Shown piece by piece: positions 1,993 to 60,947 of a stretch of DNA of 64,000 nt. The stretch is taken from positions 132,001-196,000 of the forward strand of contig CM035321.1 of NCBI GenBank assembly GCA_000497125.2. Direction: 5' to 3'. A model generated the notes under the pieces. It was not told the DNA's origin. It worked only from the letters and a program-made list of their open reading frames with translations, and did no database searches. The position numbers and the translations under genes are program-made. Numbering within the stretch: the first letter of the stretch is position 1; the number at the start of each line of letters is the position of its first letter. Source of the stretch: Spironucleus salmonicida. Taxonomy: Eukaryota > Fornicata > Diplomonadida > Hexamitidae.

Positions 1993-2745
1993 ATGGAACT
2001 TTTGTAAATAGAGAAAAATACAGAAGCACTATTAAAATTTATATCTTCTTATGCAGACACTAACTAAGCATTTTATGATTTATTTCTGTTCTCTTATGCT
2101 CTTTTTAATGAATAAATAAATAATGGTATTGACAACTTAGTTGTCATTTTAAAGCACGATTCATAAGTATAAGTTTAATTTTTTTCTTCGTAAAATTCCA
2201 GGTTTATCTCTTTGATAGATAGTTACAAGATTTTACTTGAGAAACATCTTCAGTTTCCTACTTAAGGTTCTGAAAAATAGTTAAATATTTTTGGTATATA
2301 GTTAGAACAAATAGTAACTTACCTTAAAATTATCATTCATTTCTCTTCATAAGCAAACATAAAAGATATACTTTTAAGGTTTATGTAAATTAATATACAT
2401 TATAATATAGTTAGCATTTAAAATTATGTGTTCTAATTAGGATCTATTATTTTTAAGTCTAAGAAAAATGCACTAAAAATGTTAGAATGCGCCAGTTTGC
2501 TACCTAAATAAGGGAAAAACAAAACAATCTATATTAGATATATTGATAAATAATCACATTTAAATGATTGTTGTTTTTACAAATAAATTATAGAGAGTTT
2601 AATTATAGGGTTAGAGGTTGGTCTTAATTGGCAGGTTGTATGTTTATGTGCTGGGCAATGCAAATTAGATGACAAAATTATGAAAATATTTAGTACAGGA
2701 GATGTTGAGAAAATATAATTATTTTTAAAATAATGCATTCAATGA
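1993..2745 (+). CDS. Hypothetical protein
   Basis: A 250-residue frame from ATG to TGA, 51 bp after the acetyltransferase stop and 50 bp before the kinesin start. I do not recognise it. It looks alpha-helical, with many Leu/Ile repeats (LIDSYKILLEKHL, QIVTYLKIIIHFSS) and a cysteine-bearing C-terminal third (DCCFYKQ, VVCLCAGQCKL). There is no obvious signal peptide or clear membrane helix. Length, composition and the tight fit between neighbours support a real gene; function is unknown. Confidence 0.6.
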
Positions 2746-2795
2746 TATTAATATTATATTATGTATACTTATATCTTTCAATAAATTTTCCTAAA

Positions 2796-5243
2796 ATGGA
2801 TAAAGTTGGTACTAATGTTATTTGTAAGTAAACCGGAAAAAAATATAAGATAAGCTTTACAAAACACGTATCTCAATATATAACAACTAATCATATTATT
2901 TAACATATAAGAATGATAGTTCCAAATATTAATAATTTTGATCTATTTTTCGATGGAGTTTTGCTTTAAAATGGTGAAAATTTACATAAAGCTATTAATA
3001 AAGATATTTAAATGATCGTATAGAATCAATCAGTATTAGATGATTCTTAGGATGATTATTAATAGCTAGACCATAATCAATAAACTCCATAGAAACTATA
3101 AATAGTGTAGAGCTAACCCAGTATCTATTAATACAATGAATAAGAAAATATATTAACTAGTTAAAAAGTAGAAAGAATTAGATCCATTAATAAGATGATT
3201 TCCAGTAAAAGTAATGACTATTAAATTCTTGAGAAAACAGAAAATTCACTTAATTAAGAAAAATTCTATCAGAATAACTAAAATAAACGCTAAGCAGTGT
3301 TAAATTCGACTTAAAATCTATAAATATAGTTGGGTGATAATAGTTTTTATGAAAATTATCATATAGATAATATTTAAGAAATCATACTTACAAAACGCTC
3401 TATCACACCACTATCGAATTAAAAAAATATTACTACACATTCTATTAAAAAACCAACAGATTAAATTGTTGAGAGAAAAGTTCTATTTTAAGATAGCGAA
3501 AGTATTAATCAGTAACAGATTTAATTGTTATAAACAGAGGTGAAATCTTTAAAACAATAGCTAGAAAATACAATCTTTTAATAAACATTTACTAGTACTG
3601 ACTAAATATACTAGATTGTAAACGAAAAAATATAGCAAGCTGCCGAGCTTTCCAAATCTAGGATTAAAAGCTCTTAATATAAAAAGACTTAAAATAGTCA
3701 GTTAGATGATTCTTTAGTTCTATCTGTTAATAATTAACCAGATGCTGAATTTCTCACTCATAATGCAAAATTAGATACGAAATAGCTTGAAATATAATTA
3801 ACTGATATTACATCACCAATTAATAAAAAATAGCAATCCATCTTATAGCATTAAGAATAAAATTCTTTTGAATAAAAAAGGATTTAAGCCGAAAATAGCA
3901 GCATAGAAATTGAAATTTTATCACTTACAGAACTTCTTGATCTAAATACATAGAAACTTGAAATTTTCTCATAAGATCTCAATAATACATAATAGCAACA
4001 TAATTAATTAATTTAAGAAATTTAAAATATCAAAAACAAAGCATTATGTTACCAAAAAATTGATAAGGATATCTTCGATTGGAGTTTTTAAGCTGCTGAA
4101 TTAAAGTAACAAATTAAAGAACTAAAAAAATATAATGATGAGTTGGTTTTAATATAAAATCAAAGAAGAAAACTTCATAATTTATTGGAAGATCTTAAAG
4201 GAAACATCAGAGTTTTTGTGCGCTTGCGACCTTTATTAAATGAAGAATTAGAAAATAATTTCTTAGCATCAAATTCTTCTAAGATCGAAGATTATATTAG
4301 TATTACTACATAACAATAAATAGCATTAAATTTACCATTTAGTCTACCCTAATTTAATTAATAGTAGCTGTTTAATTTTTATCGAGTATATAATTATTAA
4401 ACTTCATAAAAAACTGTATTTAGTGATATTAAGCCCCTACTTACTTCGGCAATCGATGGGTTTAATATTACTTTACTTTGCTATGGATCAACTGGATCAG
4501 GTAAAACTTTCACTCTTATTGGTGATACAGGCGATTCTGATATATACTGTGACGAAAATGATAAATTTTCACGTTTAGGAATCCTTCCACGATCTGTTGT
4601 TGAATTATTCTAATTATTGAATAATTAAACTCGCCAATTTAGTGTATCCACGGCGGTGGTGGAATTATATTTAGACAATTTTATTGATTTACTTGCTGTT
4701 GAATAAAAAGAATTAAAGATACGTTATTAAAATGAATAATATTTTATTTAGAATTTAGATTTTAAAGATGTCACATCTCCACACCAATTATTGCAAATAT
4801 TGAGTAATGCGTTAGAATCTAGACATGTTTCGTCTACAAAATGTAATTCAAGGTCATCACGTAGCCATGCGATTATTTATGTTCGTGTTAAAATAGCAGG
4901 AAGACTATCTACGATTATATTTGCTGATTTAGCTGGCTCTGAACGGGTTGAAAAAAGTCAAAGTGAAGGACTTAGATTCAAAGAAGCATAGTTTATTAAT
5001 TAAAGTTTAAGTGCCTTGGGGGATGTAGTAAATGCACTTAGTAATTAAAACTCTCATATTCCTTTTAGAAATAGTAAACTTACATAAGTCCTATAACCTG
5101 GACTAGGTGGAAATAGTAAAACATTATTGTTTGTTAATTTAAATCCACTATATGCAAATTTATAAGAGAGTTATAGTAGTTTAGTTTTTGGAACTAGATC
5201 TAAAGCTGTTTAAAATGTTGCGGTTAAAGGTTTATTTGAATGA
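2796..5243 (+). CDS. Kinesin-14 family C-terminal motor
   Basis: Minus-end-directed type microtubule motor, 815 residues. Residues 1-460 are a Gln/Asn-rich and coiled-coil region. The kinesin-14 neck (LHNLLEDLKGNIRVFVRLRP) then joins a motor domain at the extreme C-terminus, the defining layout of the Ncd/KIFC group. Motor motifs in order: P-loop YGSTGSGKTFT near residue 564, switch I NSRSSRSHAI, switch II FADLAGSER near 711, then QSLSALGDVVNAL, IPFRNSKLTQ and a short tail. The P-loop has Ser where most kinesins have Gln (GQTGSGKT). Spindle or ciliary-base roles are known for the family; which applies here cannot be told. The start is the first ATG after the upstream stop. Confidence 0.93.
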
Positions 5244-54683: not shown

Positions 54684-57600
54684 ATGGATAGCGAGGATGG
54701 AAGAATATTATTTTTGAAATAAAGAGTTATTTAAACTCTCAAACCTAGGGAAGAAAAATGGAATAAATTAATAGACTAATTGGATGTATATGAAACATTG
54801 TTATAATATTTTGAGTCAACAGAAGTAAATTAAATATTTATTTATTTGGATAAATAGGATAATTTACATCTAGAAAGGGAAGCTCCATCAGAGTTTAAAA
54901 AATATGCACTAGCATTTGCAAAATTTTCAGATTAAGAAAAAATTTAAATAAATAATATTAAGATGATATTTTAATAGTATACTTTAGCTTCAAAAGAAAC
55001 AATTGGTAAGTTATAATTATTATATGGACCTTTGTTTTAGTAGTTTACAGATGATTTACCTGAAAGTGTTAGGCTTACCACACATTCTACATTATCAAAG
55101 CTTTATTTATAATTGTCTAGACCAGAATAAGGGGTTGCTCCGGTATTACCAGAATTACCAGATGAAATATATAATAAAATTAGTAATAAGTACAGCAAAG
55201 TTCCTTCATTGTTTTAGACTAATATTGGTCCTGAAAGAACAGTGGAAACATAATAGTGTTTGAGAGAAGCCGAATAATACTTATTAACCTGGAATAAAAT
55301 AATACTCTAAGAAATTAATTACAATTTACTTATTCAATATCCACACGAGGAGTTATTATTTTGGTCCAGTAAGTTATCCAACTTATAAGATTTAGAGATA
55401 TAATTTGAACATATTAAAGTATTATCTCTTAAACGATTCTTAACTAATTAAAAATCACCTTTGTTAGAAGTTATAGGCAAAACATTGGATACTATGAAAA
55501 ATAAAATTACTGAATGTGATAATAATTTATTATTTCTTAAGCCCTTAGAAGAGATTTTTGCTTTACTTGAGGATATATCGCAACTATCCAAAGTTACTAA
55601 CACATTCTTTAAAGCCTGCTCAATAATTACTGAGAATTCGTTATACTATAATAATCAAGAGCGTATAAAGATGTTCTTTAGAAGTTTTATTAACTAATTA
55701 ATTAAAACTATTTAATAATTTTTAGAGTTTGATAATATTTTAAAGGCAGATCCAATAGATTCATTACCTTTGGTTAATAAAGCAATTTTACTGTGCAAAT
55801 AAATTATATAAATTTATGACATTCATTACCTATCCTCTTGGCCATTTGCAAAAGAATTATTTTAAAATTTGAACTAATTTTATAACAGATTGAATGATAT
55901 CAAAACTATGTTATAAATCTGGATAAATCTGATGAAGTTAGAAAAATTAGAAGTTGGAGGATAAAACGGAGAATTAATATTTCATTAAGTTACCTAAATT
56001 TATAATTAATTCATCAATAGACTAATGATTTTATAAGAACCAGATTACGATCCTACTGATATAACTTAAAATAAATTTGACAAGGTATATATGGAATTTT
56101 TAAGATAATTTACAGAATGGGAAAAAAGATTAATTGGAATTTTATAAATGACTCTTTAATAAGATAATAAAATAGAATTTTATTGTGCAGTTATTTAACA
56201 ATTTTATGGTATATTAGAAAAAAGTGTATTAAAAGCAACTATAATAAAATAATTTTCATAATTTTAGAAAAAATTTCTAATTTTTATGCAAGAAAAATTA
56301 GTACTTATTTCTGAAAAATATAAAACTGTTTTATTTTCTGAATAAGTAAGATATAATATATAACTATAGTAAGTTATTCTTGAACAATTTGAGAAGGTAT
56401 AAATGATATATGAATCCATTGATGATGATTAGGTTTAATAAAAATTATAATCCATTGAAAAATAAGTTTAGTAAATTTCTACCAATCAGAATAACAAAAA
56501 TCAAGAATTATTTTAATAATGGCTACAATAAAATGATATATAGTTTTAACTTAGTAATTAATTATATTTAGTTAACATTGAATCAATTAATATTGAAACG
56601 GATTTAATAAAAATTTAAAGACATCAAGAATTAGACGAAAAATATACTCTAACACTTAATTATCATTCTGCTATTAAAGATTTTTTCTAAGACGCACATT
56701 CTTTTTCCCTGCTAGGATTTATTATACCTGAAAATTTAGTTGAAATTATTTATTAACATTCCCGGTTTGTAAATATTTAAAATGAGCTGAATATAAAATT
56801 TGAAGAATTTAATTATATTTAAAAAAATTTATCTTCAATAACCAAACCATTATTTTACTATGAGTTGGAACAAATTATAGATGTGATCTAACTAAATAAA
56901 AATAATCTAAAATGGAATTCAGCGGATTATCTTATTTAAGAATTTATTGATAAATTAGACATTATATCATCACTTAATATGAAAGTATTGTAACTGCGCC
57001 AGTTTTTTAAAACTTAAGACTAAATTGTTAAATAGCTGACTTAGTTATAATTATTTATTAAAATTAAATCATTATTTAATTTAGTGGACATCTAAAAATA
57101 GATCCCAATAAAGTTTAACACTATTAAAGAAAAACATTTTGATAATACAATTGAATAACTGTCATAAATTAAATAATCTGTTACAGATAGTAATTTATAA
57201 AATTGGGATAATTTTTTAATGTTTTAAACCTAAACACTTGCAAACTAACTTATATAATTAATTTTATTTTTATCAAGTAAGTTGATGAGTTAAATAGATG
57301 AATCTGAATAGTTTTCCTATTGTGATCTATTTTAAAAATAAAATCTCTTAAATGAAAATGCTTAACATTCAATTGAAATTTAAGCTATATTAAGACCCCC
57401 AATAGCATTATGTGATCCTAGTATTACTGATATTGATGGGCGAATAACTTTAGAAAAATTATTTTTAAATATATTTGATGAAATTTGCCAATTAGGTAAA
57501 TACTTGCCTAATTTAAGTGAATATGTAGATTAAAAATATTTAAGGTAAAATGAATATAAAAATTATGTTATTTATTGTTAAACTGCTTAAGAAGTGACCA

Positions 57601-60600
57601 GTTAAAAGAATAAGATTAGACATAAAATTTAAAGAAGGTGTAAGCTTGTTTAAGAAGAAATGAACATTCTATAAAAATATTATTATTTATATGAAATAGA
57701 CAAAAAATAATTCCTGTAAAGCTATTTAACATATGGACCTAATATAAATTGGCAAGGTATTCCAGAAGAATCAAAATTATAAGAAACTTAAAAAGTTATT
57801 AGAGAATAGTAGATTTAAGGTGAAGATGAAGTTACCACTATTAAGTCAGAAATAGATGTCTAATACTATAGAGAACCAGATCTGTATGATTTTAACGATA
57901 CTTTAAAAAGGTTTCAACAAATTGGAGAGGAATTATCCGCAGACTTACCTTTATAAAAAAGATTAGGGTGGATTTTACTTAACTTCAGACCCGTAAGAAG
58001 GTAACTGCAATAGAGTTCTGATCTTTTTAAATAGATGTTCCTGTAGCATTTAGTAACCTCTACATAACAACAACTGGAAAATTATGAACGATTTTTCGAT
58101 GAATCTCTTACATTGTTATAAAAAGCTGAATAAATACCAATGGGTTTAGATTTTGAGTAATTGCTAAGAACATATAAGTAAGTTAAATCTGAGGAACGAG
58201 TAATTAATTAAAAGTTTGAACCTCTTAAGAATACATTGTAGTTGCTAAAATCTCTAGAAGCAAATTATCCTGAATAATTAGAAAAGCTAATTGAAACTTA
58301 GCCTAACAAATGGATAAATGTAAAATAAGTTTGTCTTAAACAACAAGAATATATTTATTCAAAATAGTAAGAATAAGGAGGATTGTATTAAGAATAATAT
58401 TATGAATTCGCACAAGAGATAACAATCTATAAAGAGAAATATTTATAAAACCAAGCATTTAGTATTTAAGATAATGATGAAGCTTATTGTTTAATTGATA
58501 ATGTATATTAATATATTGAAAATTTATTACTTAAAGCCTTAATCTATGATGAGAAGTTGAAAATATTTGATTTTTCTACATAAAAGATTCCAGAGATAGA
58601 TATTATTGATCAACTTAAAAATGATCTAAAACTTCTTAAGACAACACGTGATGTTGGCGATATGATTTAAACATGGTTTTCAGAATTTGGAAAATCATTA
58701 TTTAAAACAATAAATACTGAAATATTAGAAGATAATATTAAAGCCTTAACTAAAGAATTCAAGAATATAAATAAGAATGCAAGAAAATTTGAGTATTATA
58801 AATATTTAGATAACCTTTTGAAAAATTTTTCAAAACTTTTACCTATTATAAATAATTTACGATCTCCCGCTGTAGAAGAGAAGCATATAAATTAAATTAA
58901 AGAAATAACAGGTAAAGATATTAATTTGTAAATGTCATTTAACGAGATTGTATAATTAGGTTTAGGCGAATTCGAAGAAGAAATAGTAACAGTTGTTGCA
59001 AAAGCTGAAAAAGAATTAACAATAGTGGAGTATATGCGTAATTTAGGTAGTTTTTGGTAAGTTCAAGAATTCAGTTTTATAAGAGTAGGCGATTAAACTG
59101 GATAAATTATGACAGTAGATGATGTTTTAAAAGATAAAGAATCTCAATTATATTCTATCATGATATCAGAAGATTTAAATGATACATTAGAATCAGATTT
59201 GATGACATTAGGTTAAATGTTAGCGAATAAATTGTTAACAGATTCACATCCAAGATTTAAAGAATGGTAAAATAAATTAGTTATATTAGACTCAGTAATT
59301 CAAACTTGGTTGAATGACTAAAAAGTTTGGTCTTACTTATATCCAATCTTTATGCTATCAGACGATATAAAATAGTAAATGCCAGAGGAAACCATCATTT
59401 TTTAGAAAGCACACAGTAGATATATTACGGAAATAAAATATGCTATCTATCATCCAGTAGCATTATAATTAGCAATTAAAGAAAACTTTTTGGGTTCATT
59501 AGAGGAAATTTAATTAAACCTGCATACGTGTGAGAAAAAATTAAATGACTACCTTGACCAGAAAAGAAAAATTTTTCCAAGATTTTTCTTCATTTCATCT
59601 GTTGATCTATTAGATATCCTCTCAAAAAGTAACTAGCCAATTTTAGTTGAAAAGCACTTGTCAAAACTAACCGATAATACTAAAAATATGTTATGGAACG
59701 GGGATAAAACTATTGGTATGGAATCATCTGAAGGAGAAAAAGTTAATTTCCCAGAAATACACCTAATTGGTCCAGTAGAAATATGGATGGAGTAATTTTT
59801 GGTATCTTCCAGAAACTCCTTAATGCAATTAATTAACTAAGCTTTAATTTTTATTGCAGAAAATAATGATAAATTAGCATTTTTGAATAATTTTCCAGCA
59901 CAAATAACACTTCTAGCACTTTAAATTGTATGGACTCAAGAAACCTTTGCTATTTTGGAGAAAGCTGAACTAGGGGACGATGTAGCTGTAAAAGAATATA
60001 ATAAGAAATAGAACGAGTAGCTGCTGGAATATATTAAACTTATTTAAACAACGTAAGACAAGTAATTTAGACAGAAAATATCAACCATATGCACAATTGA
60101 AGTACATAATAAGGATGTTGTTAGTGATTTAGCAAAATAAAAAGTAGATACACCGAACGCATTTTAGTGGTAATGTTAACTCAAATTTCATTATACAGAT
60201 ACATGTTTTTCAACAATCTGTGATGCAAGGTTCTAATACAGTTATGAGTATCTAGGCAATAATACTAGACTCGTTATCACACCATTAACGGATCGTTGTT
60301 ACATAACCTTGACATAAAGCCTTCATCTTATGCTGGGGGGAGCCCCAGCAGGGCCTGCTGGAACAGGAAAAACGGAAACTACAAAGGATTTAGGTAAGGC
60401 ACTGGGTAGAATGGTATATGTGTTCAACTGTTCACCTGAGATGGACTTTAAGTCATTAGGCTCCATTTTTTACGGGCTGGCAATTTCTGGTTCATGGGGC
60501 TGCTTTGATGAATTTAATAGAATAGAAGTTGAAGTATTATCAGTTGTTGCAATGTAAGTTAAAACAGTACTAGATGCAATTAGGGCTTAAAAAATATTTT

Positions 60601-60947
60601 TCTCATTAGATTAAGATGAAGAAAATCCAACTACACGACTTAATTCTGACGTCGGATATTTTATTACAATGAATCCTGGTTATGCTGGTAGAACTGAGCT
60701 TCCAGATAATTTAAAAGCATTATTCAGAGGTGTAGCTATGGTTGTTCCTGACTTTTGTTAAATTACAGAGATTATGTTAGTATCAAATGGTTTTATTTCT
60801 GCACGAAATCTAGCAAAAAAATTCACTACATTATATAGTTTAAATAGAGAACTACTATCGAAATAAGATCATTATGATTGGGGCTTAAGGGCTATTATAG
60901 CTATTTGTAGGACAGCTGGCATGTTGAGAAGAGAGATGATAAAGTGA
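54684..60947 (+). CDS. Dynein heavy chain, outer-arm beta type, ending after AAA1
   Basis: 2087 residues in one frame from [17 protein letters not shown]. Tail (about 1-1350) and linker (about 1350-1850) are followed by AAA1: [20 protein letters not shown] with P-loop near 1887, [40 protein letters not shown] (Walker B near 1940), [42 protein letters not shown], and [15 protein letters not shown]. The wording matches the DNAH9/11/17 beta group. A TGA comes 8 codons after TAGMLRREM, where ordinary heavy chains run on for about 2500 more residues with AAA2-6, stalk and MTBD. The linker motif usually reading RHW is KHI. The downstream 55 bp leads into an opposite-strand gene, so no remainder is here. 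Truncated functional protein, locus break, or a frame disrupted by assembly remain open. Confidence 0.88.

What the first reader, a model, noticed from the sequence alone, without database searches (positions are those of the whole stretch)
54684..60947. Dynein heavy chain that stops directly after AAA1
The frame is intact through tail, linker and a complete-looking AAA1 (P-loop, Walker B, sensor motif), then ends at TGA. Five AAA modules, stalk, microtubule-binding domain and C-terminal domain are missing, and the next gene starts on the opposite strand 55 bp later. A 2087-codon frame without decay argues against a plain pseudogene. The protein could occupy a heavy-chain slot in an outer arm or its docking site without being a motor, or act as an assembly dominant. 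The degenerate linker motif (KHI for RHW) suggests relaxed mechanical constraint while AAA1 stays conserved.
Basis: partly seen in the sequence, partly recalled or inferred. Interest (0 to 1): 0.85.

Follow-up and report, generated by a model that had tools for sequence, protein, structure and literature searches.

The report
Spare front half of split dynein
The gene is not a broken motor: in this fish parasite and its relatives one flagellar dynein is encoded as two separate half-proteins, and this gene is a second, diverged front half that probably shares the single back half, so one engine could carry two different tails.

Summary
The frame 54684-60947 is real (2087 codons, TAA/TAG = Gln, no internal TGA) but ends inside the AAA1 lid, not after AAA1. 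The missing modules are encoded elsewhere: an orphan 2502-aa gene (C4:216045-223553, +), with its own ATG and a start-proximal promoter-like element, runs from the rest of AAA1 to the C-terminus. On DNAH17 the two pieces map to 222-2037 and 2042-4461. This genome (Spironucleus salmonicida) has two such N-halves, the window gene A and B, but one C-half was found. Seven further N-halves (B, Hexamita, two Giardia-type, Dysnectes, Kipferlia, a metagenome) stop at the same place and form, with A, one side of a supported branch. The stop is therefore inherited from an old split of the outer-arm beta heavy chain. No splice signal exceeds chance. A is a hexamitid duplicate: it departs at 93 of 258 otherwise invariant tail and linker columns, but at 5 of 129 in the AAA1 core and 0 of 37 in the lid beside the break. 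Best reading: A joins the shared C-half non-covalently as an alternative N-subunit. A two-polypeptide beta chain was, as I recall, predicted for Giardia in 2012; a second N-half for one C-half appears new. Expression and pairing are untested.

The parts
54684..60947 (+). N-half gene A: tail, linker, AAA1 core and first lid helices of an outer-arm beta-type dynein heavy chain, 2087 aa, TGA at 60945-60947
55278..56924 (+). DHC_N1 match (residues 199-747)
58608..59843 (+). DHC_N2 match (linker, residues 1309-1720); contains KHI in place of RHW at 58872-58892
60237..60935 (+). Partial AAA_6 match (residues 1852-2084, profile 1-229 of 327); profile 233-327 is on the C-half gene at C4
60351..60371 (+). 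Walker A GPAGTGK
60501..60518 (+). Walker B CFDEFN
60759..60935 (+). AAA1 lid up to the split (residues 2026-2084): A departs at 0 of 37 columns invariant in the seven other N-halves
60924..60947 (+). Split site: LRREMIK then TGA; the other seven N-halves carry 9 to 17 residues after LRR, A only 4

Best explanation
The window gene (A) is the N-terminal half of an outer-arm beta-type dynein heavy chain that was split into two genes before Kipferlia, Dysnectes and diplomonads diverged. N-half: tail, linker, AAA1 core and first lid helices. C-half: rest of the AAA1 lid, AAA2-6, stalk, microtubule-binding and C-terminal domains. Each half is expressed from its own gene and the ring is completed by non-covalent assembly across a break in a loop of the AAA1 lid. 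A arose by duplication of the already split N-half in the hexamitid lineage; since no C-half of its own was found, it most likely uses the single C-half on C4, giving a second heavy chain with the same ring but a different tail and linker. Shown by sequence: the split, its conservation, the copy numbers in the held assembly, constraint on A. Inferred: separate translation, assembly, sharing, place in the outer arm.
For: Orphan C-half and two N-halves, the ends abutting on DNAH17. Copy numbers: 16 DHC_N2 loci against 11 Dynein_C loci, accounted for by ten loci with both, A, B, four divergent chains and the orphan. Seven of seven own-genome chains aligned across the site run through it. Seven other N-halves stop at the same place, Hexamita has the matching C-half (P0002); one side of a branch, 100/100 and 97/97. 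Unsplit fornicate Aduncisulcus. Own start and shared CTTTCCGCAAAAT before the ATGs of B and the C-half. No splice signal above chance. A: AAA1 81% identical to B although fourfold sites agree only at chance level (27 of 81, expected 0.35), dN 0.16 in AAA1 against 0.63 linker and 0.81 tail; lid 0 of 37 departures.
Against: No expression, proteomic or interaction data. A lacks the promoter-like element seen before B and the C-half, is more AT-rich than B (third positions 20% against 28% GC), has lost the basic C-terminal extension, and its branch is the longest: 1.57 against 0.38 for B in linker+AAA1, 0.33 against 0.11 in AAA1 alone; all fit weak or decaying use. Lid against AAA1 core is not significantly different (p 0.59). 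AAA1 could be conserved for its own fold. The 2014 genome paper states that homologues of Giardia's split-intron genes were found intact in S. salmonicida (PMC3916229, passages), which sits ill with a two-piece beta chain. A third search with residues 1-900 found no relative at all.
Confidence: 0.62

Rival explanations
1. A is a headless N-half: AAA1 is kept as a folded nucleotide-binding cap, but A never binds a C-half and acts as a structural filler, docking piece or regulator of arm assembly.
For: No C-half of its own; linker and tail strongly diverged, linker motif degenerate; basic C-terminal extension lost.
Against: Walker motifs and all 37 invariant lid columns intact; a C-half that fits exists in the same genome.
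Confidence: 0.22
2. The two halves are joined at RNA level by spliceosomal trans-splicing, as in Giardia.
For: [quoted passage not shown] The AAA_6 match divides cleanly at 232/233. B has a GTATG inside its last codons.
Against: No Spironucleus donor or acceptor motif, Giardia cleavage motif or complementarity beyond shuffled controls, except a marginal 9 of 12 match to the cleavage motif before the C-half (11 of 200 shuffles as good) that overlaps the promoter-like element (flanks of 160-164 nt only). The GTATG of B lies in conserved codons and is absent from A. Stops in frame in eight N-halves. C-half has its own ATG in Spironucleus and Hexamita. Published searches found no trans-splicing in S. 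salmonicida (PMC5224939; PMC3916229 passages; PMC6679479 cis-intron search, passages).
Confidence: 0.05
3. A is a duplicate on its way to becoming a pseudogene, still open by chance or because the duplication is young.
For: Long branch, AT-rich composition, no promoter-like element, lost basic tail.
Against: Synonymous sites between A and B are saturated, so the duplication is old, yet 0 internal TGA against about 46 expected and AAA1 dN only 0.16.
Confidence: 0.09
4. Assembly error at the TGA or a missing second C-half.
For: The held assembly is 14.47 Mb in 37 contigs, the published one 14.7 Mb in 42 scaffolds (PMC9509377, part 1 of 3), so a little is missing.
Against: A ends where seven other sequences end, 55 bp before a convergent open frame and far from a contig end.
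Confidence: 0.02

Closest known systems
Giardia dynein heavy chain beta (Roy et al. 2012; Kamikawa et al. 2011)
   Same: As I recall the 2012 abstract, it is predicted to be assembled from two separately translated polypeptides; the G. muris N-half and the Giardia-like P0127 stop at the same residue as A; PMC8494341 (passages) uses the names Dhc-beta C-1 to C-3.
   Different: In Giardia two trans-spliced introns are added (table seen). Spironucleus shows continuous genes, and has a second N-half. The 2012 text is not held.
Outer-arm beta heavy chains DNAH9/DNAH17 and Chlamydomonas beta
   Same: Best PDB matches of A, B and the C-half; A, B and C-half cover the chain collinearly.
   Different: One polypeptide there, two here.
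Hexamita inflata split pair P0123 and P0002
   Same: N-half of 2355 aa and C-half of 2536 aa with the same break; P0002 is named Outer-arm dynein beta.
Chlamydomonas truncated heavy-chain mutants (titles in the reference list seen; content recalled)
   Same: A tail without a full motor can sit in an arm (recalled).
   Different: Laboratory mutants of one-piece genes.

Membership tests
Outer-arm beta dynein heavy chain | Closest to beta/DNAH9/DNAH17 over tail, linker and AAA1 | tested here: met
   DNAH17 best, residues 218-2083 of A on 222-2037; no tree with gamma or inner-arm chains of other species was made
Outer-arm beta dynein heavy chain | AAA1 to AAA6, stalk and C-terminal domain in one polypeptide | tested here: not met
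   Divided between A or B and the C-half on C4
Fornicate split beta N-half | Stop directly after the LRR of the AAA1 lid | tested here: met
   A and seven others
Fornicate split beta N-half | Falls with the other N-halves in a tree | tested here: met
   100/100 and 97/97
Fornicate split beta N-half | Basic C-terminal extension after LRR | tested here: not met
   A has only EMIK
Fornicate split beta N-half | Assembles with the C-half as protein | not testable with these tools
   No complex prediction or experiment
Giardia-type trans-spliced gene | Donor, acceptor, cleavage motif and complementarity at the junction | tested here: not met
   cleavage motif marginal before the C-half
Giardia-type trans-spliced gene | Chimeric reads | not testable with these tools
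   No reads held
Pseudogene | Internal stops, loss of constraint | tested here: not met
   0 internal TGA; AAA1 dN 0.16 at saturated synonymous sites; tail and linker relaxed

The most novel reading that the evidence does not exclude
A combinatorial dynein: two alternative N-subunits (tail, linker, AAA1) share one common C-subunit that carries the rest of the ring, so the cell builds two beta-type motors with identical rings but different tails and linkers. I know of no such modular heavy chain elsewhere (recalled; searches as listed).
Probability: 0.5. Interest if true: 0.85.

Novelty: new variant of a known kind. Interest (0 to 1): 0.66.

Why it matters
The dynein heavy chain is usually one giant polypeptide whose linker and ring are covalently continuous through AAA1 (recalled). 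A lineage that has kept it in two pieces since before Kipferlia and diplomonads parted would show that the ring can be completed in trans at the main ATPase site, and gives a natural split point for structural and engineering work on AAA1-AAA2 coupling. A second N-half for the same C-half would make tail and linker exchangeable on a fixed motor, a natural experiment on what they contribute. It also suggests that trans-splicing in Giardia was added to a chain already split at protein level.

Tried and rejected
A second orphan C-half was sought with AAA_7, AAA_8, Dynein_C and AAA_9 over the genome: none found; the tool warns that counts of large families are lower bounds. A candidate third N-half (C5:1329000, AAA_6 match also ending at 231 of 327, 70.8 bits) is part of a continuous 5540-aa divergent heavy chain, and C3:467083-480039 is one continuous frame of 4318 aa; in both the AAA_6 and DHC_N2 matches lie in the long frame. 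The other two divergent loci (C5 near 442-449 and 1367-1375 kb) were not read; they have AAA_9 matches downstream. RNA-level joining not supported. Gene conversion as cause of AAA1 similarity rejected by saturated fourfold sites. A search with residues 1-900 of A found only A itself, not even B, so it is limited by shared words. AlphaFold fragments were weak (mean pLDDT 62 and 58): last helix of A to residue 535 of 536, first helix of the C-half at residues 5-21, both ends below pLDDT 50; no fold search was run. NCBIfam gave no match at all for P0137 and P0128, Pfam gave Hom_end_hint for P0137. AU test of B+Hexamita without A: not rejected, p 0.118; A+B 88/78, not starred: the time of the duplication is open. 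The exact 13-mer promoter-like element with up to 2 mismatches is not enriched in the window (6 matches, mean 2.7 in 100 shuffles, 6 shuffles as many).

Literature: searches. One search (Spironucleus + dynein) gave 21 papers, 20 listed. Papers opened, all as passages unless said: PMC6679479, PMC3916229, PMC10711314, PMC7641422, PMC11787283, PMC2239267, PMC12338079, PMC8494341, PMC3610916; PMC5224939 parts 1 and 2 of 3; PMC9509377 part 1 of 3. In what I saw, no split heavy chain in Spironucleus and no second N-half is reported; most subscription papers are not in that library, and the 2012 Giardia paper and two reviews are not held.
Full report
What is there. The window lies on contig C6 (1,673,122 bases) of a 14.47-Mb genome in 37 contigs. 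The organism is Spironucleus salmonicida: gene B on the same contig gives exactly protein P0124, named 'Dynein heavy chain [Spironucleus salmonicida]', from a contig of that length. TAA and TAG are read as Gln. The frame 54684-60947 codes for 2087 aa with DHC_N1, DHC_N2 and a partial AAA_6, profile 1-229 of 327. It has no TGA but the last; Markov simulations give 46.5 on average and at least 25 in 300 trials.

Where the rest is. A genome search with AAA_6 gave 20 matches. A (358 bits) and B (C6:1326491-1327201, minus, 355 bits) stop at profile 232 and 230; one match over the cut-off (77 bits, C4:216072-216356) is an orphan that starts at 233. B is a 2296-aa gene with its ATG at C6:1333357, minus; the orphan is a 2502-aa gene, C4:216045-223553, beginning MSFNLEEIVKEEEKVICRALRD. 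On DNAH17 (chain 9fqr_I4) A aligns to 222-2037, B up to 2037, the C-half to 2042-4461. The break falls in a short loop that the unsplit Aduncisulcus chain P0005 bridges.

Copy numbers. DHC_N2 has 16 loci, Dynein_C 11, AAA_8 12, AAA_9 13. Ten loci carry both DHC_N2 and Dynein_C; the eleventh Dynein_C is the orphan C-half. The other six DHC_N2 loci are A, B and four divergent chains; the two of these that I read are continuous frames of 5540 and 4318 aa, the other two have AAA_9 matches downstream. So the held assembly has two N-halves and one C-half. Seven other heavy chains of this genome aligned across the site all run through it.

Age of the split. Of the 226 proteins returned I looked at the ends of 15, chosen by domain content and organism. 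Seven N-halves (Hexamita inflata, B, Giardia muris, the Giardia-like P0127 with 30 members, Dysnectes brevis, Kipferlia bialata, metagenome P0129) end 9 to 17 residues after the same LRR; A ends 4 after it. P0002 is a Hexamita C-half beginning with Met near the site. The other seven run through. In trees of linker+AAA1 (16 rows) and AAA1 alone (17 rows) the eight N-halves are one side of a branch, 100/100 and 97/97, and A falls with B and Hexamita, 100/99 in both. Aduncisulcus, also a fornicate, is unsplit, though its record is partial. The stop of A is thus best read as inherited from an already split gene: A never had its own AAA2-6.

Separate expression. The stops are in frame, the C-half has its own ATG, and CTTTCCGCAAAAT stands within 6 bp of the ATG of both the C-half and B. 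The 12-mer CTTTCCGCAAAA occurs 12 times in the genome (5 for the reversed control) and 10 of the 12 lie within 6 bp of an ATG. This resembles the C-rich motif near start codons reported for 16.7% of genes (PMC3916229, passages). Splice and cleavage motifs and complementarity do not exceed simulated controls, but for a marginal 9 of 12 cleavage-motif match that overlaps the promoter-like element. Published searches report no trans-splicing in S. salmonicida. In tension with the two-piece reading, PMC3916229 says that homologues of Giardia's split-intron genes were found intact there; it may refer to the pieces.

What A is. A is 23-28% identical to B in the tail, 38% in the linker, 81% in AAA1. 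Fourfold sites in AAA1 agree at chance level (27 of 81; expected 0.35), with dN 0.16 there, 0.63 in the linker and 0.81 in the tail. Of columns invariant in the seven other N-halves A departs at 44 of 106 (tail), 49 of 152 (linker), 5 of 129 (AAA1 core) and 0 of 37 (lid). For columns invariant in the six without A and B, A and B depart at 54 and 15 of 121, 53 and 8 of 160, 8 and 6 of 135, 0 and 0 of 37. AAA1 against tail plus linker gives p 7e-18; lid against core p 0.59. On the trees A is nevertheless the longer branch in AAA1 too, 0.33 against 0.11. A lacks the promoter-like element and the basic C-terminal extension. The simplest reading is an N-subunit with changed tail and linker whose AAA1 must still fit a ring; the only free partner found is the shared C-half. 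Pairing is inferred, not shown; a headless role remains the main rival.

Known or new. As I recall, the 2012 Giardia paper predicted that the beta chain is assembled as two separately translated polypeptides (text not held). I saw no report of these in the searches named under Tried and rejected.

Noticed in passing
P0137 (Kipferlia bialata) and P0128 (Dysnectes brevis): Both dynein N-halves carry an intein-like insert of 404 and 414 aa inside the AAA1 Walker A motif, between GPAGTGK and TETTK; Pfam Hom_end_hint matches in P0137 at E 6e-29 and is listed for P0128. No paper on it was found.
   Followed up: partly
P0132, P0133, P0134 (Eukaryota sp. TZLM3-RCL, GEM-RC1, TZLM1-RC): Three beta-type N-parts run through the fornicate break and all end inside AAA2 with similar lysine-rich C-termini: possibly an independent second split of the same chain, or gene-model ends.
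   Followed up: partly
window about 14-24 kb and C6:113-123 kb: Two near copies of a complete heavy-chain locus about 33 kb apart; 3897 of 3993 ungapped positions equal around AAA1, so a diverged duplication.
   Followed up: partly
L016-L027 (12 genome places of CTTTCCGCAAAA): Among the ten ORFs starting at the element I recognise, by eye only, an LC8-like dynein light chain (L027), two RIIa-like proteins (L018, L025), a MAPK15-like kinase (L021) and an annexin or alpha-giardin (L023): perhaps a flagellar promoter variant.
   Followed up: partly
C5:1320828-1337450 (minus): A continuous 5540-aa, very divergent heavy chain with an altered AAA1 P-loop (SPSGQGKT).
   Followed up: no
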